Of a DNA stretch of 64,000 nucleotides, positions 19,044-24,992 are shown one piece after another. This stretch comes from Hamadaea flava. GTDB lineage: Bacteria; Actinomycetota; Actinomycetes; Mycobacteriales; Micromonosporaceae. The translations under genes and the position numbers were made by a program. The stretch is taken from contig NZ_JAMZDZ010000001.1 in the NCBI RefSeq assembly GCF_024172085.1, positions 8,680,001 through 8,744,000 on the forward strand. Direction: 5' to 3'. Under the pieces are notes generated by a model. It saw only the letters and a program-made list of their open reading frames with translations. It searched no databases and was not told the DNA's origin. Position 1 is the stretch's first letter; each line of letters begins with the position of its first letter.

Positions 19044-19061
19044 TTTCAGCGCCGATTCAGG
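19044..19061 (+). promoter_or_regulatory. Putative SARP box 1
   Basis: TTTCAGC and ATTCAGG are direct heptamer repeats 4 bases apart (11-bp period), the spacing known for SARP/AfsR operators. It lies 67 bases before the first exported-protein gene. Two near-identical copies precede the other two exported-protein units around the AfsR/SARP gene. PHO boxes share this geometry, so PhoP is an alternative binder. Confidence 0.65.
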
Positions 19062-19128
19062 CCCGCGCCATCGCCTTCCCGCACGCTTCCGGCGTCAACC
19101 AGGAAGCCCGCAAGGGAGGGAGCACCGG

Positions 19129-19854
19129 ATGAGACCTTTGGCGTACCGCTTGGCGGTACTTGGGGCGATCGGCGGGATGGCGCTGGCTACCACGGCCGCA
19201 GCCACACCCGCAATGGCCGGGGACGCTACGCCGATCAAGGGCGAGTGCGTGATCGAGCACGTGGACGAGCGAGGTCAGGTCATCGACACCGCGAGCGCGC
19301 GGGAAGGAGACGAGTACGGCCCGTTCCGTTGCGCTGACGCGCAATGGAAGCTGGTCCGGAATCCGTTCGACCGGGATGACGCCGTCACGAGTCTGGAGAT
19401 CCAGATCGATCCCGCCGGCAAGGTTTTCCCGGGTCGGCTGGTGGGTTCGGCTCTCGGCGCAGGCATGACGCTGCGCGACCTGGCGCGCCTCGTTCAGGCT
19501 CTCACCGGCGAGGAGGTGGTCGTCGATCGCGCGATCGTGGCGGTAGACGACGGCAAGCAGCGGACACCCGAACAGGTGCGGGCCCTCCTGGCGGGCAAGG
19601 ACACCACCGGCGTCCGGGTGCTGGGCGAGTTCGACCGGCTCGACCAGACGATGACCGTCAAGGACGTCGTCGACGGCGCCGAGGGCGCGGATCCGGAGAC
19701 GACCGTCGTCTATTTCAGCATCTGGGGGGCGATTAAGGACGCGTTCAACTGGGTGGTGAAGAAGCTTCGCGCCGTCGGCGACTGGCTCGACGAGCACTGC
19801 CATCTGGAACCGTCCGCGACCGGTGACGGCGCCGACCTGGTCTGCGAGTTCTGA
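19129..19854 (+). CDS. Exported protein of a local paralogous family (member 1)
   Basis: A 241-residue secreted protein with no known function. A Sec signal peptide occupies about residues 1-30 (LAVLGAIGGMALATTAAATP then AMAGDA). An N-terminal module CVIEHVDERGQVI...FRC...WKLVRNPF is shared with the protein at 24276. A central module (RAIVAVDDGKQRTPEQVRALL, then GVRVLGEFD) is shared with those at 19856 and 24276. The C-terminus has an amphipathic or membrane-active stretch, FNWVVKKLRAVGDWLDE, and a Cys pair (HCHLEP to VCEF). The start ATG has GGGAGGGAG upstream. It is the first gene of a two-gene operon behind SARP box 1. Confidence 0.82.
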   Translation: MRPLAYRLAVLGAIGGMALATTAAATPAMAGDATPIKGECVIEHVDERGQVIDTASAREGDEYGPFRCADAQWKLVRNPFDRDDAVTSLEIQIDPAGKVFPGRLVGSALGAGMTLRDLARLVQALTGEEVVVDRAIVAVDDGKQRTPEQVRALLAGKDTTGVRVLGEFDRLDQTMTVKDVVDGAEGADPETTVVYFSIWGAIKDAFNWVVKKLRAVGDWLDEHCHLEPSATGDGADLVCEF

Positions 19855-19855
19855 C

Positions 19856-20737
19856 ATGAACCAATTCGCTAAGCGCGTCGCAGTCGTCGTCGCCCTGACA
19901 GTTGCCAGTCTCACGGTCGCGGCCGTCCCCTCGAGCGCCGTCGGGGATGGCACGAGGCTGACGATCGAGGATCGGCCCGGTGCCCCCGGGCAGGTGCTGC
20001 GGGAGATCGAGCGGTTGGCCGGGCAGCCACTGGGCGACCTGGACCAGGTCATCGCGGTGGACACCGGTGGCCGGCTGCTCACCGTCGACCAGCTGGAGGC
20101 GGTCGTCGCGGGGAAGGAGGTCGAGGGCGTACAGGTGCGGGGCACCATGCCCGGCCGCCCGGAGATGCTCGACACCACGCTGGCCGACCTCGCCGACGGC
20201 GAGTTCGACGGCCGCGAGAGTGGCGACGGTGCATCCACCGTGCTGTTCGCGACCTCCGTCCCGGAGGGCCGCGACTGGTGCCTGACCATGTGCATCGCCA
20301 GGGGCCATTCCGTGCGCGAGTGCATGCTGGCTCGGTTGGGCGGTGACGGCTGGCTGACCCTGACGATGGCCGGCACCACCACGTTGGGGGGCGTGAAGGC
20401 GGGCCTCGAGAAGGCGGGCCAGATGTCCTCGCTCACCTTGGCGCGAGTGGACACCTATGTCGGCGACGAGGAGCCATCGGAGCAGGACCTCCAGGACCTC
20501 GCGGCGGGGCGGGATGTCGGCTCGCTGCGCCGGGCCGCCACCGTCGAAGCACCCAGCCCTGACTGGGCGCTCGACGAAGTGGCCGGGAAATCCGGCGTCG
20601 CGTACGCGAAGACGACGGTGATCGTGATCGAGTCCGACTGGCCCTTGCTCGGCCACATCCTGATCGCCTGTCACTCCACGGACGGCGGGAAGCACTACCG
20701 GTGCCTCGTGCGGGCGTTCGGCGGGAACCAGGGCTAG
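19856..20737 (+). CDS. Exported protein of a local paralogous family (member 2)
   Basis: A 293-residue secreted protein of unknown function; signal peptide about residues 1-28 (VAVVVALTVASLTVAAVPSS then AVG). It keeps the shared central module (VIAVDTGGRLLTVDQLEAVV, GVQVRGTMPGRP, LDTTLADLADG). It lacks the N-terminal CVIE module and adds a Cys-containing helical insert (DWCLTMCIARGHSVRECM). The C-terminal Cys pair IACHSTDGGKHYRCLV parallels the INCKKLPNGNQSCVI end of the protein at 24276. Its ATG is one base after the previous stop (TGACATG). A hairpin terminator follows. Confidence 0.82.
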   Translation: MNQFAKRVAVVVALTVASLTVAAVPSSAVGDGTRLTIEDRPGAPGQVLREIERLAGQPLGDLDQVIAVDTGGRLLTVDQLEAVVAGKEVEGVQVRGTMPGRPEMLDTTLADLADGEFDGRESGDGASTVLFATSVPEGRDWCLTMCIARGHSVRECMLARLGGDGWLTLTMAGTTTLGGVKAGLEKAGQMSSLTLARVDTYVGDEEPSEQDLQDLAAGRDVGSLRRAATVEAPSPDWALDEVAGKSGVAYAKTTVIVIESDWPLLGHILIACHSTDGGKHYRCLVRAFGGNQG

Positions 20738-20746
20738 CCGTCCAGG

Positions 20747-20776
20747 TGGAGGGCTCTCCAGTCGGGGAGCCCTCCA
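20747..20776 (+). terminator. Hairpin terminator after exported-protein operon
   Basis: TGGAGGGCTC (20747-20756) and GAGCCCTCCA (20767-20776) form a perfect 10-bp stem with a 10-base loop. It starts 10 bases after the stop of the second exported-protein gene and ends 4 bases before SARP box 2, insulating two separately controlled units. Confidence 0.8.
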
Positions 20777-20780
20777 GCGG

Positions 20781-20798
20781 TTTCAGCGCCGATTCAGC
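20781..20798 (+). promoter_or_regulatory. Putative SARP box 2
   Basis: TTTCAGC-GCCG-ATTCAGC: two heptamers in direct repeat with 4 bases between. Its first 17 bases are identical to box 1. It precedes the cysteine-rich exported protein gene by 54 bases. Confidence 0.65.
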
Positions 20799-20852
20799 GC
20801 GGGGTGCCAAGGTGTGCCCGACGAACCGGACCTGATGAAGGAGGAGTCCACG

Positions 20853-21371
20853 GTGAAACTGACCAGGGTGCTGGCCGTGCTGGCGATGGTGTTCGCCGGG
20901 CTGGCGGGCCCCGCGACGGCGCAGGCGACCGAACCTGCGCCCGGCGGGACACCGGACCCCGCGACCTTGAGGTACATCTGCGCCTTGTTCGCGGGCGAGT
21001 ATCACGAGACAGATCCGCTCACGTATGCCTGCCAGATCGGCGACGAGGAGATCCTCTGCGCGGTGGCACGCGAGGAAGCGGGCAAGGACCCGGGCGGTAG
21101 GGACGCCGAGGAACCGCCGGCGGTGCGCTGCGGGTACGAGGTGAGCGCGCGCATGTGGCCGTCGCCGCTGAGAGACCGCTGCGACATGGCGGGCGGCACG
21201 TGGAACCAGGACCCCAGGGCCATCGTCGGTGCCTGCGAGTTCAAGGACATCCGAGTTTTCGTGCTATGCCCGGACGAACCGTGGCCCTCGGATTCGACCG
21301 TCTGCTCTATCGGCTCCGATCAGCCGATGTCCGTAGTCGAGCCCGAACCTTCGCGGAGTCCGGATGTCTGA
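20853..21371 (+). CDS. Cysteine-rich small exported protein
   Basis: A 172-residue secreted protein with no family I can name. The signal peptide ends near residue 24 (VLAVLAMVFAGLAGPATAQA). The mature part has eight cysteines (ICAL, ACQI, LCAV, RCGY, RCDM, ACEF, LCPD, VCSI), an even number suited to four disulfides. It does not show the central module of its neighbours, but has the same promoter element and size class. I chose GTG 20853 because AAGGAGGAG sits 6 bases upstream; the frame opens earlier at 20814. Its last 65 bases overlap the 3' end of the convergent AfsR/SARP gene. Confidence 0.78.
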   Translation: MKLTRVLAVLAMVFAGLAGPATAQATEPAPGGTPDPATLRYICALFAGEYHETDPLTYACQIGDEEILCAVAREEAGKDPGGRDAEEPPAVRCGYEVSARMWPSPLRDRCDMAGGTWNQDPRAIVGACEFKDIRVFVLCPDEPWPSDSTVCSIGSDQPMSVVEPEPSRSPDV

Positions 21372-24075
21372 GTAGTTCGAGGATCTCCAAAGCCTGTTTC
21401 CAGGCCACCTGGGCGGCGCCGTCATCGCCAGTGGCGTGATAGGTGTCGCCCAGGTGCTTGAGCGTGTCGGCTTCGTAGTACCGGTCGTCCAGCTCGCGGA
21501 ACAGCTCCAGCGCCCGCTGGAAGTGCTCGATGGCAAGATCGTGATCGCCGAGGTGGTGGTAGATGTAGCCGAGGCTGTCCGACGTCCCGGCTTGAAACGT
21601 GAGGTCGCCCAGTTCGCGCATGCGGGTCAAGGCCAGCTCGCACCTGGGGCGGGCGCGGGCGAAGTCGCCTCCCAATGCGTACGCCCAGCCTAGGGAATTG
21701 AGCGCCCGCGCGGCCATCATCGATTGCCCGGCGAGGCGATACAGCCGCAGCGCCTGCCGCGCGTGGCCGACCGCCTGCTGGTGCTCGCCCTGGCGGTTGG
21801 ACAGCCACCCCATCTGGTACTGGACCTTCGCCTGGTCGCCGAGGTCGCCGAGGGACGCGTACAGGTCGAACGCCTGCGCCAGTTGGGTTTGGGCCGCGTC
21901 ATAGCGCGCCATCCGGGCGTACGCGGTCGCCAGGTAGAAGTGGGCGTTGGCCTGTGCGGCCCGCGCTCCGAGGCACTTCGCGCTCTCGATCGCCGCCTGC
22001 TGATTGGCCACCTGGTCGCCCCAGTGACCGCCGCGGTCGAGGTGGTCCAGGGTCGCCCAGGCAAGCCGCCACACGTACTCGTGGTATTCGAGCGCGGCGG
22101 CGCGTTTGATCAGGCCCAATAGGACGGCGCGTTCGGCGGTGAGCCACGAAGCGGCCTCTTCCCGGCTGCTCAAGCGTTCCGGCGTCGCATCCGGGCCCGG
22201 CGGCGGCACGACCGGCGGTTCACGCTGCGGGTTGAGCAGCAGAGCGGCCGACATCGCGGTGTGCAGGTAGTGATCGAGCAGGCGAGGGAAGCCGTCCTCG
22301 TCGCGCCCGAGATCGGCGGCGTAGGTCCACAGCAGATCGTGCAGTCCATAGCGCTCGGGGCTGGATTCGGTCAGCAGATTCGCCCGGACCAGCTCGGCCA
22401 GCTTCTGCTGGACGTCGGCCGCCGGCAGGGCGGTCAGGCTGGCGGCGGCCGCTACGGTGAAGTCGGGGCCGGGATGCTGCCCCAAGAGGCGGAAAACCCT
22501 TGCGGCAGCAGGGCTCAGCGCATGATAGGACCACGAGAAGATGGACCGGATGTCGGTGCCGGAGTCCAGGTTCCGCAGCGCGTCGAGGGTGCCGAACGAC
22601 TTCCGCAGCTCCGCTGCGACGCCGCGTACCGGCAGGTGTGGCCGGGTGACACAGCTCGCGGCGGCCAGCGCCAGAGCCAGCGGCAGCCGGGCGCAACACG
22701 TGATGATCTCCTGGATCGCCGCCTCCTCCGCGGCCACGCGATCCTTGCCGATCCGGCGCGTCAACAAGTCACGTGCCTCGTCGTCGGTGAGGGGCTCCAG
22801 GATGACCGGCTGCGCGCCCTCCACCGTGACGAGGGCGGTGAGCTGGTAGCGGCTGGTCACCGCGACCGCGCAGCCGGGCGTTCCCGGCAGCAGCGGCCGC
22901 ACCTGTTCGGCGTCGCGCGCGTTGTCGAGAACCACCAGAATCCGTTTGTCGGCAAGGACGCTGCGATAGAGGGCGGCCAGCGCATCGATCTCCGCCGGGA
23001 TCTTCTCCAGCGGTACGCCGAAAGCGTCCAGGAACGCCCGAAGAACCGTCGCGGGCTCGGTGACCGAACCGCTCCGGTCGAAGCCGCGCAGATCCGCGTA
23101 CAGCTGGCCGTCCGGGAATCCGTGGCGCGCGGAGTGCGCCCAGTGCACCGCGAGGGTCGTCTTGCCGACGCCCGCCGTGCCCGAGACGATCGCGATGCAC
23201 ACGTTCTCCGTACGCCGTGCCATCACCTCGTCGAGCCGTTTCAGCTCGTCGCGCCGAGCCGCGAAGGCCGCGGTCGCCAACGGCAACTGCGCCGGTACGC
23301 GAACCGTGGGCGCGACGATCAACGGCTGGCTCGGCGCGTCCAGCGCGCTGTCCTGACGCAGGATCGAGGCTTCCAGGTCGCGCAGGCCCTGCCCCGGATC
23401 GATGCCCAGCTCGTCGGCGAGGGTCCGCTTCAACCGCTGGTATCGCGCGAGCGACTCGGCCTGTCGGCCGGCGCGGTAGAGCGCGAGCATCAGCTGCCGA
23501 TGCAGGTCTTCGTCGAACGGGCGCGCGGCCACCAACTGCTCCAGCTCCGGGACGAGCTGGGCGTGCTCGCCCAGGGCAAGCCGAGCGTCGACGAGTGTGC
23601 GGATCGCCTCGAACTGGGTCTGGCCCAGCCGCTGGGCCTGCTCGCCCAGCCACCGCAGCTCGGCTACGTCGGCCAACGCCGGCCCCCGCCACAGTGCGAG
23701 CGCGGCGTCCAGATGGGTGACCGCCTCCTGCGGACTGGCTGCCTGCCGGCCTTGGCAGATCAGCCTTTCCGCCTCCTCGACGTCGGTGGACAGGTCCGCG
23801 GTACGCAGGAGATAGCCGGGCGGCTTGGCGACGATGGCGTTTTTGGAGCCGAGCAGGTCTCGCAGGTAGGAGATGTTGCGCTGCAACGTGTTCGTCGCCG
23901 TGGCCGGCGGTTCGGCGTCCCAGACGACGTCGATGAGCTGGTCGATGCTGACGGTCCGGCCGGGGTTGAGGCCGAGGACGGCGAGCACGGCGCGGCGGCG
24001 CAGCCCGGGCACCGCCGTGACCGTGCCGTCGGCGGAAGCAACCTCGATCGGGCCGAGAAGCCTCACCTGCGTCAT
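21307..24075 (-). CDS. AfsR/SARP-family transcriptional regulator (SARP-NB-ARC-TPR)
   Basis: A 922-residue regulator. Residues 1-100 form the OmpR-like winged-helix domain (RLLGPIEV, RRRAVLAVLGLNPGRTVS, TLQRNISYLRDLL). Residues 100-240 form the BTAD (ending DELGIDPGQGLRDLEASIL). Residues 270-560 form an NB-ARC ATPase with P-loop GTAGVGKTT (299-307) and Walker B ILVVLDNA. The C-terminal part carries TPR repeats (for example FAGT-like LGDLGDQAKVQYQMGWL and GDHDLAIEHFQRALELF). AfsR-type proteins integrate signals and bind 11-bp-period direct repeats. Such repeats lie upstream of the three exported-protein units that flank this gene, so they are the likely regulon. ATG 24075 begins the conserved MTQVRLLGP; the frame extends to 24165 and no start has a clear ribosome binding site. 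Confidence 0.92.
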   Translation of the reverse strand: MTQVRLLGPIEVASADGTVTAVPGLRRRAVLAVLGLNPGRTVSIDQLIDVVWDAEPPATATNTLQRNISYLRDLLGSKNAIVAKPPGYLLRTADLSTDVEEAERLICQGRQAASPQEAVTHLDAALALWRGPALADVAELRWLGEQAQRLGQTQFEAIRTLVDARLALGEHAQLVPELEQLVAARPFDEDLHRQLMLALYRAGRQAESLARYQRLKRTLADELGIDPGQGLRDLEASILRQDSALDAPSQPLIVAPTVRVPAQLPLATAAFAARRDELKRLDEVMARRTENVCIAIVSGTAGVGKTTLAVHWAHSARHGFPDGQLYADLRGFDRSGSVTEPATVLRAFLDAFGVPLEKIPAEIDALAALYRSVLADKRILVVLDNARDAEQVRPLLPGTPGCAVAVTSRYQLTALVTVEGAQPVILEPLTDDEARDLLTRRIGKDRVAAEEAAIQEIITCCARLPLALALAAASCVTRPHLPVRGVAAELRKSFGTLDALRNLDSGTDIRSIFSWSYHALSPAAARVFRLLGQHPGPDFTVAAAASLTALPAADVQQKLAELVRANLLTESSPERYGLHDLLWTYAADLGRDEDGFPRLLDHYLHTAMSAALLLNPQREPPVVPPPGPDATPERLSSREEAASWLTAERAVLLGLIKRAAALEYHEYVWRLAWATLDHLDRGGHWGDQVANQQAAIESAKCLGARAAQANAHFYLATAYARMARYDAAQTQLAQAFDLYASLGDLGDQAKVQYQMGWLSNRQGEHQQAVGHARQALRLYRLAGQSMMAARALNSLGWAYALGGDFARARPRCELALTRMRELGDLTFQAGTSDSLGYIYHHLGDHDLAIEHFQRALELFRELDDRYYEADTLKHLGDTYHATGDDGAAQVAWKQALEILELLRHPDSAKVRARLRTSADRSR

Positions 24076-24191
24076 GGTCACAGTCTGCCCATCTCCACCA
24101 CGCGTCACCTCATGCGTGGTCGAAATCGGACAGTTCGGTTTTTGAGCAAGCATGTTGTGACGCACGGTGAACGGCGGCCTGGAGGAGGCGG

Positions 24192-24209
24192 TTTCAGCGC
24201 CGCTTCAGC
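24192..24209 (+). promoter_or_regulatory. Putative SARP box 3
   Basis: TTTCAGC-GCCG-CTTCAGC, differing from box 2 by one base. It lies 66 bases before the exported-protein gene at 24276, and 117 bases upstream of the divergent AfsR/SARP start, so it could serve autoregulation as well. Confidence 0.65.
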
Positions 24210-24275
24210 CCAGCGCCAACCTCGGCTGCCACAGTCCTCAGCGCCAACGCATTGGACATCTCCATGGGAGGAAGC

Positions 24276-24992
24276 ATGGCGCAACGGATGCTCAGCAGGG
24301 CCCTGGCCGTGGGCGTGATCGCGAGCGCGATCCTGTCGGCCGCCGGTTCGGCGTACGCACAGGACGACAAGCCGTCCGACCCGAAGAAGGGCTGCGTGAT
24401 CGAGTACGTCGACGACAACGGCAAGACGATCGGCAAGAAGACCGTGCCGCACGGCACCAAGCTCGGCGGCGGAGTGTTCACCTGCAACAACGGGGAGTGG
24501 GAATTCTTCTGGATCCCCTTCGAGACGGTGGTCTCCGGGACCGCCGACACCGTCGTCGTCGACGTGAAGGAGCAGGTCAAGGACGTCCTGGGGGTCCAGG
24601 TGGACACCCGCGAGGGCCAGCTCCAGGTGCGGGAGATGCTCAGCGCCGTCGAATACCTGTACGGGGAGCGGGCCGACGAGCCTGGCGGTGCGCTCGTGCT
24701 GGACACCGCCGGTCGCGAGGACGACCTCACCGCCGACGACCTCACGGCGCTGTTCGACGGCGGTGAGGTGACCGGAGTCCGTGTCCTCGCCGCCGCGAAG
24801 CCCGGCCTCGAGACCACGCTCGGTGAGCTGGGTGAGCTCGGTGGTGGCGACGACGGCACCGGCGTGATGGCGCGCAAGGTCGCCATCCAGCTCTATGGCT
24901 CCAGGTACTGGTTCGTCGGCACCATCAACTGCAAGAAGCTGCCCAACGGCAATCAGAGCTGCGTGATCGACGGCAGTATCGTCAAGCGCTGA
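24276..24992 (+). CDS. Exported protein of a local paralogous family (member 3)
   Basis: A 238-residue secreted protein of unknown function. The signal peptide ends about residue 27 (VGVIASAILSAAGSAYA). The N-terminal module GCVIEYVDDNGKTIGKKT...FTC...WEFFWIPFE matches the one in the protein at 19129. The central module (ALVLDTAGREDDLTADDLTALF, GVRVLAAAKPGLETTLGEL) matches both paralogues, and the C-terminal Cys pair INCKKLPNGNQSCVI resembles IACHSTDGGKHYRCLV at 19856. I chose ATG 24276 because GGGAGGAA precedes it; the frame opens at 24252. A strong hairpin ends the unit. Confidence 0.82.
   Translation: MAQRMLSRALAVGVIASAILSAAGSAYAQDDKPSDPKKGCVIEYVDDNGKTIGKKTVPHGTKLGGGVFTCNNGEWEFFWIPFETVVSGTADTVVVDVKEQVKDVLGVQVDTREGQLQVREMLSAVEYLYGERADEPGGALVLDTAGREDDLTADDLTALFDGGEVTGVRVLAAAKPGLETTLGELGELGGGDDGTGVMARKVAIQLYGSRYWFVGTINCKKLPNGNQSCVIDGSIVKR

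What the first reader, a model, noticed from the sequence alone, without database searches (positions are those of the whole stretch)
19044..24992. SARP-controlled set of small secreted paralogues
Three transcription units for exported proteins surround one AfsR/SARP regulator. Each has a nearly identical direct repeat upstream (19044, 20781, 24192: TTTCAGC-GCCG-[A/C]TTCAG), with the 11-bp period of known SARP sites. Three of the four proteins share a central module (VDxxGxxxTxxQLxALL-GVxVxG) and two share an N-terminal CVIExVD module with a Cys pair. The fourth has eight Cys. SARPs normally control antibiotic clusters; a dedicated secreted-protein regulon is unusual and I know of no description.
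Basis: partly seen in the sequence, partly recalled or inferred. Interest (0 to 1): 0.82.

Follow-up and report, generated by a model that had tools for sequence, protein, structure and literature searches.

The report
Antibiotic-type switch for secreted proteins
A regulator of the kind that normally turns on antibiotic production appears here, and in many related bacteria, to be wired by a conserved DNA signature to a small set of secreted, cysteine-bonded proteins of no known family, which suggests a previously unnoticed job for this class of regulators.

Summary
The three 11-bp direct repeats (19044, 20781, 24192) are the best matches to this site in the whole 8.86 Mb genome. Three of the four exported proteins share one module. 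The unit, an AfsR-type SARP beside Sec-exported proteins, occurs in 42 of 354 genomes of the bacterial family, with the SARP adjacent in 40 of 42. Samples across the phylum gave only doubtful further hits. In 41 of 42 loci a 2-3x TTTCAGCnnnn repeat begins 57-96 bp before the first secreted gene. In most sites a CAnnGT follows at fixed distance, the published SARP/afsS promoter layout. Second genes of operons (32 of 32) lack it. Unlinked gene copies in two genomes carry it. The linked SARPs form one clade with its own recognition helix. The secreted proteins found no convincing relative in Pfam, NCBIfam or the PDB. What they do outside the cell is unknown. I slightly favour interaction with or antagonism of other cells over an envelope role. 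Binding and regulation are inferred, not shown.

The parts
19044..19061 (+). SARP-type direct repeat TTTCAGC-GCCG-ATTCAGG, beginning 85 bp before gene A
19129..19854 (+). gene A: type I secreted protein (241 aa): signal-peptide-like start, Cys-pair N-terminal module, central module, amphipathic helix, C-terminal Cys pair; 4 Cys
19856..20737 (+). gene B: type II secreted protein (293 aa), central module apparently twice, each followed by a Cys-containing stretch; second gene of the A-B unit, no clear site of its own
   Evidence: the type I profile hits the type II gene at two places in 7 relatives
20781..20798 (+). SARP-type direct repeat TTTCAGC-GCCG-ATTCAGC, beginning 72 bp before gene C
20808..20813 (+). 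-10-like hexamer CAAGGT, 9 nt after the second TTTCAGC-type heptamer (8 nt if the heptamer is read as TTCAGCG)
   Evidence: A at +11 in 18 of 21 and T at +15 in 19 of 21 non-redundant sites
20853..21371 (+). gene C: type III secreted protein (172 aa) with 8 Cys
21307..24075 (-). AfsR-type large SARP regulator (922 aa): winged helix, BTAD, NB-ARC, TPR
24192..24209 (+). SARP-type direct repeat TTTCAGC-GCCG-CTTCAGC, beginning 84 bp before gene D
24276..24992 (+). gene D: type I secreted protein (238 aa), second copy without the amphipathic-helix stretch, C-terminal Cys pair

Best explanation
A dedicated AfsR-type SARP binds the 2-3x TTTCAGCnnnn repeats that take the place of the -35 element. Side-by-side protomers recruit RNA polymerase to a weak CAnnGT -10 element, as AfsR does at afsS. 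In response to a signal read by its NB-ARC/TPR part, it switches on a small set of Sec-exported, disulfide-containing proteins (types I, II, III) instead of a small-molecule cluster. Shown by sequence: the conserved unit, the conserved promoter layout, the one SARP clade, exported Cys-rich proteins, and no other gene family kept inside the unit. Inferred: disulfides, binding, activation and the signal. Function of the proteins, my commitment: they act outside the cell by binding other cells or their surfaces (antagonism, or interaction with neighbours), the shared central module serving as scaffold and the exchangeable Cys-closed tail as contact surface. I give the regulatory part about 0.85 and this functional reading about 0.35.
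For: The only sites with 0-1 mismatch in the genome lie here. The unit is in 42 of 354 family genomes, the SARP adjacent in 40 of 42. Of 32 family genes from 15 representative loci, 23 have a site score of 10 or more (of 14) within 150 bp upstream, against 6 of 245 other gene starts from those and two further loci (Fisher p 4.8e-21); the 9 without are all second genes. 39 strict sites in the window and 41 other loci all precede a family gene, counting one whose gene start I had misplaced. The -10 position is fixed in most sites, matching the published SARP rule and afsS (TTCAGC, CACTGT; PMC10936776 passages). Linked SARPs form one clade, 40 of 40 (support 0.70); 38 of 40 share the recognition-helix segment LQxxxSYLR, 0 of 31 others (26 alignable there). 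Two loci found later by the type III profile also have SARP and site (L202, L204). Unlinked type II-like genes in G218 and G044, whose SARP lies on another contig, carry sites (L203, L207). Signal-peptide-like starts in 82 of 83; 4 Cys in 39 of 39 type I. Omega 0.26-0.99 by 25-codon window for I and II against 0.21-0.25 for the SARP.
Against: No binding or expression data exist. One genome (G314, L120) keeps gene and site but only a C-terminal remnant of the SARP. In G226 (L127) a fusion of type III-like and central module has no convincing site and no SARP nearby. In the window, sites A and D have a poor or shifted -10 hexamer; only C is canonical. Most loci come from one genus-like group (30 of 42 genomes) and are not independent. 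For the functional reading: no immunity, processing or transport gene is kept with the unit, the tails evolve under purifying selection, and no fold match is convincing.
Confidence: 0.72

Rival explanations
1. Same SARP switch, but the secreted proteins are structural or surface proteins of the producer itself (hyphal or spore envelope, surface-active coat), switched on during development.
For: AfsR homologues affect development in some Streptomyces (PMC10972967 passages). In each of 9 type I proteins measured, the strongest helical hydrophobic moment lies in the C-terminal part. No enzyme family and no immunity gene kept with the unit.
Against: Patchy distribution: the three other species of the same genus held lack it, unlike a core developmental part. 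The proteins evolve faster than their regulator.
Confidence: 0.33
2. The repeats are bound by another regulator that uses 11-bp direct repeats, such as PhoP, and the SARP next door is not responsible.
For: AfsR and PhoP recognise overlapping repeats at afsS (PMC10972967 passage).
Against: A PhoP regulon would be expected to have many sites (recalled); the own genome has only three good ones, all beside this SARP. The repeat-to--10 spacing is that of SARPs. SARP and sites are kept together across 40 genomes.
Confidence: 0.06
3. The secreted proteins are inhibitors of extracellular enzymes (proteases, glycosidases) of competitors or of the producer.
For: Small, exported, Cys-rich, no catalytic family.
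Against: No convincing match to an inhibitor family in Pfam or the PDB; modest evidence either way.
Confidence: 0.15

Closest known systems
AfsR (Streptomyces coelicolor) and the afsS promoter
   Same: Same domain order (winged helix, BTAD, NB-ARC, TPR); P0002 residues 6-896 align with PDB 8k60 AfsR, E 1.4e-117. Promoter of two 11-bp repeats over a poor -35 (TTCAGC) and a weak -10 (CACTGT) (PMC10936776 passages).
   Different: Not AfsR itself: 543.7 bits against NCBIfam's cut-off of 1430. Base-contacting AfsR residues T88 and R92 align with R and Y here (counted by me). The apparent targets are secreted proteins, not afsS.
Cluster-situated SARPs with three-repeat sites (DnrI, ActII-ORF4)
   Same: Direct heptamer repeats, two or three units (PMC10972967 passages; here at 11-bp steps).
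   Different: Those switch on antibiotic biosynthetic genes; here no biosynthetic gene is kept with the unit.
EmbR (Mycobacterium tuberculosis)
   Same: Shares the SARP domain (residues 5-269, E 9.3e-39) and, recalled, serves a cell-envelope and not an antibiotic function.
   Different: EmbR has an FHA domain (PMC10936776 passage) and, recalled, no NB-ARC/TPR; recalled targets are enzymes.
Small secreted protein Cgt of Actinoplanes
   Same: Small exported protein of an actinomycete (PMC7275007, search listing and start of abstract only).
   Different: Cgt is a single carbohydrate-binding module; types I-III gave no such match.

Membership tests
AfsR/SARP regulators (large SARPs) | N-terminal winged helix plus BTAD | tested here: met
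   PF00486 34.5 bits (cut-off 26.2) and PF03704 147.1 bits (cut-off 22.1)
AfsR/SARP regulators (large SARPs) | NB-ARC and TPR parts | tested here: met
   PF00931 48.2 bits (cut-off 23.5), TPR_12 84.1 bits (cut-off 30.1)
AfsR/SARP regulators (large SARPs) | 11-bp direct repeats at targets, 3' repeat 8 bp from -10 | tested here: met
   Repeat layout, and CAnnGT at fixed position in most of 21 non-redundant sites; weak at window sites A and D
AfsR/SARP regulators (large SARPs) | Binds the repeats and activates transcription | not testable with these tools
   Needs purified protein or a mutant
AfsR equivalog (NF053617) | Score above curated cut-off | tested here: not met
   543.7 of 1430 bits
SARP-controlled antibiotic or RiPP cluster | Biosynthetic or modification genes conserved beside the SARP | tested here: not met
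   In 16 loci (18-20 kb each, window 64 kb) the groups shared by 3 or more loci at E 1e-15 were SARP, type I, type II, an ABC ATPase (4 loci, about 4-6 kb from the unit) and one other protein (3 loci, about 2-5 kb away)
Known secreted-protein families (Pfam, NCBIfam, PDB) | Profile match above cut-off | tested here: not met
   Window proteins A-D: none above a cut-off in Pfam or NCBIfam. Pfam on 8 type I, 12 type II and 7 type III members: every listed family matched a single member, best E 3.9e-4 (Amidohydro_2, one type II member), next 0.0024; cut-offs are not shown in those tables. PDB profiles E 0.32 or worse
Mog1/PsbP/SciW-like fold (type II C-terminal part) | Clear structural match | tested here: inconclusive
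   Best Z 5.7, rmsd 3.2, 83 aligned, to SciW (6xrr); Foldseek best E 0.039 to an unrelated clamp protein

The most novel reading that the evidence does not exclude
A SARP-controlled arsenal of secreted proteins: a conserved carrier module is fused to exchangeable Cys-closed tails (Trp-rich amphipathic helix, cationic or hydrophobic beta-hairpin, WCLTMC-type Cys peptide) that bind or disturb the surface or membrane of other cells, so that the antibiotic-type switch here launches ribosomally made protein weapons directly, without enzymes, transporter or immunity gene.
Probability: 0.2. Interest if true: 0.82.

Novelty: new variant of a known kind. Interest (0 to 1): 0.66.

Why it matters
SARPs are used as beacons for antibiotic gene clusters; this would be a clade of large SARPs whose conserved targets are exported proteins, so cluster-mining rules would misread it. 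It gives a compact test bed (one regulator, three near-identical sites, four target genes) for how the NB-ARC/TPR part of AfsR-type proteins is switched. It also adds three orphan families of Cys-rich secreted proteins whose domain shuffling suggests exchangeable contact surfaces.

Tried and rejected
Chance origin of the repeats: rejected. PhoP-type reading: judged unlikely, see rivals. Mobile element: D and B have no match in plasmids, D none in phages; the type II alignment found no relative in viral contigs. Wider spread: type I profile in a phylum sample of 396 gave own plus one doubtful hit (G678, first 70 positions, no SARP in L128); type II profile in 346 gave own plus two partial hits at E 5e-4 and 8e-4, not looked at further. 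Type III was searched in the family only. Weak early hits L027-L029 (G031, G055, G061) match none of the type I-III profiles and I count them as chance; L020, the one hit (a Desulfosoma record), was not examined. L205 and L206 (weak type III hits, E 4e-6 and 5e-5) have no strict site; L206 has a similar Cys stretch by eye. Pro-peptide with a conserved dibasic cut: an idea only, looked at by eye, no consistent site. Structures: AlphaFold2 with only the window's own proteins gave mean pLDDT 52.6 (A with D) and 53.0 (B with A and D); only B residues 171-290 are fairly confident (block means 64-91); fold searches gave nothing convincing. Sites elsewhere: HTTCAGCNNCGNNTCAG in 28 genomes gave 33 places against 14 for the control; by my count 17 of 33 stand before family genes or the DUF3103 gene of G034, the other 16 are at control level. 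Of these 16 I fetched G226:C37 (two overlapping places, one site), G034:C1:6175571, G034:C2:472541, G372, G216:C1:3465513 and the G327/G339 pair: none precedes a family gene; the rest were not fetched. Papers: seven searches; I saw listings and starts of abstracts, and passages of PMC10936776 and PMC10972967; most subscription papers are not in the library.
Full report
WHAT IS THERE. The family is probably Micromonosporaceae; that is my inference from sequence look, genome sizes and kinship, no tool named it. Around an AfsR-type regulator (21307-24075, minus) lie three transcription units of exported proteins: A-B (19129-20737), C (20853-21371) and D (24276-24992), all on the plus strand. Each unit is preceded, beginning 72-85 bp before its start codon, by TTTCAGC-GCCG-[A/C]TTCAG. 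B follows A directly and has no clear site (best score 9 of 14). The division into units is read from this layout, not measured; a simple scan found neither sigma-70-type promoters nor terminators on the plus strand.

HOW RARE THE SITE IS. TTCAGCGNNNNTTCAG occurs four times in the genome, three of them here; the reversed control occurs zero times. The fourth (955995) is far from the only family genes that the profiles find in this genome. With up to three mismatches 45 places match against 68 for the control, and only these three have 0 or 1 mismatch. With the looser HTTCAGCNNCGNNTCAG the genome gives these three and the control also three. So no further regulon is visible in this genome, although a weaker site would be missed.

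THE PROTEINS. D retrieves A (31% identity, E 2.8e-9) and B (34%, E 4e-4) from the genome. A and D (type I) have an N-terminal Cys-pair module, a central module and a C-terminal Cys pair. B (type II) carries the central module apparently twice: the type I profile hits the type II gene at two separate places in 7 relatives. Three relatives have a short type II with the first part only, and the g17 group has a still shorter form. C (type III) has eight Cys; seven are invariant in the seven type III sequences aligned. In L127 one protein joins a type III-like Cys stretch to a central module. Over the loci (L127 and L128 left out), signal-peptide-like starts were seen in 39 of 39 type I, 36 of 36 type II and 7 of 8 type III (the miss is a start that I placed wrongly). 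Cys counts in the mature part are 4 in 39 of 39 type I; 5, 3 or 2 in 29, 3 and 4 of 36 type II; 8 or 9 in 7 and 1 of 8 type III. The signal-peptide rule is mine, not a published program. By that rule none begins its mature part with Cys, as a lipoprotein would. In nine type I proteins measured the 18-residue stretch with the strongest helical hydrophobic moment lies in the last 75 residues. Family searches: none above a cut-off for A-D in Pfam and NCBIfam; Pfam on 27 members gave only single-member hits, best E 3.9e-4; PDB: E 0.12 for D alone and 0.32 or worse for the profiles.

THE CONSERVED UNIT. The type I profile hits 42 of 354 genomes of the family, 38 with a near full-length protein and 4 with the central module only. 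The type II profile hits 38 and the type III profile 13 of the same 354. In the phylum samples only the own genome gave a convincing hit (396 genomes for type I, 346 for type II; these samples include the own genome and at least one other of its family). The three other species of the same genus that are held lack it (one of them is 87% complete). I took the loci of all 42 genomes (window, L021-L026, L093-L127). A SARP stands beside the secreted genes in 40 of 42 (in L113 its reading frame is cut). The exceptions are L120, where only a C-terminal remnant is left, and L127. Two further loci found by the type III profile, L202 and L204, also have the SARP. No other gene family is kept with the unit: in 16 varied loci the only groups shared by three or more loci were the SARP, type I, type II, an ABC ATPase (4 loci, about 4-6 kb off) and one other protein (3 loci, about 2-5 kb off).

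THE PROMOTERS. In 150 bp upstream of the start, all 39 type I and all 8 type III genes have a best repeat score of 10 or more out of 14, a level reached by 309 of 17200 random 150-mers from the same loci, which themselves include true sites. Of 36 type II genes, the 32 that follow a type I gene score 9 or less. Of the four that start their own unit three score 12; the fourth (L125) was scored from a wrong start and has its site as well. In 15 representative loci 23 of 32 family genes reach 10 against 6 of 245 other gene starts in these and two more loci (p 4.8e-21). The controls include, by oversight, the family genes of L202 and L204; related loci make the p value optimistic. A strict scan of both strands of the window and 41 other loci finds 39 sites, each upstream of a family gene; weaker sites, such as those of L021, L023 and L120-L123, fall below its threshold and are seen. 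None of the 39 stands before a SARP gene, so there is no sign of autoregulation by the same site. Many relatives have three repeats (for example TTTCAGCGCCGTTTCCGGGCCGCTTCAGC). After the last heptamer a hexamer CAnnGT begins 10 nt on: A in 18 and T in 19 of 21 non-redundant sites; one of the 21, from L127, is probably not a real site. Published SARP promoters have their 3' repeat 8 bp from the -10 (heptamer read one base later), and afsS has TTCAGC at -35 and CACTGT at -10 (PMC10936776, passages read). In the window only site C has the canonical hexamer (CAAGGT, 20808-20813); at A and D it is shifted or poor. Two unlinked type II-like genes, in G218 (L203) and G044 (L207), carry sites although no SARP of this kind lies in the stretch taken, and both genomes have that SARP on another contig (L202, L026). 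In G034 (L204) a second site stands before a divergent 385-aa exported protein of family DUF3103.

THE REGULATOR. P0002 has all parts of a large SARP and aligns with AfsR over nearly its whole length, but it is far below the AfsR cut-off. The own genome has 37 places that match it at E 1e-20, itself included; the best other one has 44% identity. In a tree of 71 SARPs the 40 linked ones form one clade without any of the 31 others (support 0.70); 29 of the others are from the own genome, so the test is limited. The recognition-helix segment reads LQxxxSYLR in 38 of 40 linked SARPs and in none of the others (26 alignable there). By my count on the alignment, AfsR's base-contacting T88 and R92 correspond to R and Y.

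SELECTION. In 25 loci (24 of one genus-like group and one relative), omega in 25-codon windows is 0.26-0.99 for type I and 0.27-0.82 for type II, highest in and near the signal peptide; for the SARP it is 0.21-0.25 by region (simple counting method). The proteins are thus real and constrained, but looser than their switch.

MECHANISM AND FUNCTION. The regulatory chain (SARP, repeats, polymerase recruitment, secreted proteins) follows from the conserved layout and the AfsR structures; binding and activation are inferred. The signal is unknown. For function I weigh three readings: action on other cells (0.35), envelope or surface of the producer (0.33), enzyme inhibition (0.15). Patchy presence, looser evolution and exchangeable tails favour the first; the lack of any immunity or processing gene and the purifying selection on the tails speak against a classical bacteriocin. 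The structural models are too weak to decide.

NOVELTY. The regulator type and promoter type are known. What I found no description of, in the listings of seven full-text searches of open-access papers (two listings cut), is a SARP clade whose conserved targets are exported proteins, and the three protein families. I file it as a new variant of a known kind.

Noticed in passing
L238:9690-9720 (G226:C37:79689): Three TTTCAGC-type repeats at 11-bp steps begin 76 bp before an 875-aa class IV lanthionine synthetase LanL (947.7 bits, cut-off 650). The genome carries the type III/central-module fusion elsewhere (L127).
   Followed up: partly
L131:4293-5716, L158:3301-3726 (own genome, beside SARP paralogues); similar-looking ORFs by eye in L133, L153, L154: Several SARP paralogues of the own genome sit next to an S26-type signal peptidase (tested for L131 and L158) and, in L131, an ABC transporter ATPase, a second possible link between SARPs and exported peptides.
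   Followed up: partly
L137:4307-5141 (own genome, near C1:1412302): Beside another SARP paralogue lies a 62-aa Cys-rich ORF without family match, followed by a 198-aa protein with a weak Redoxin match (20.7 bits, cut-off 26.6).
   Followed up: partly
L204:12490-13744 (G034): Divergent from the SARP, a 385-aa exported DUF3103 protein (84 bits, cut-off 25) has its own repeat site.
   Followed up: partly
L021:8832-9275 (G069): A 147-aa exported-looking protein without family match, between SARP and type I gene, has a run of roughly 11-bp TCAG repeats upstream, seen by eye.
   Followed up: partly
L120:8329-8562 (G314): Only a 78-residue C-terminal remnant of the SARP is left beside a type I gene with its site: a natural loss to study.
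   Followed up: no
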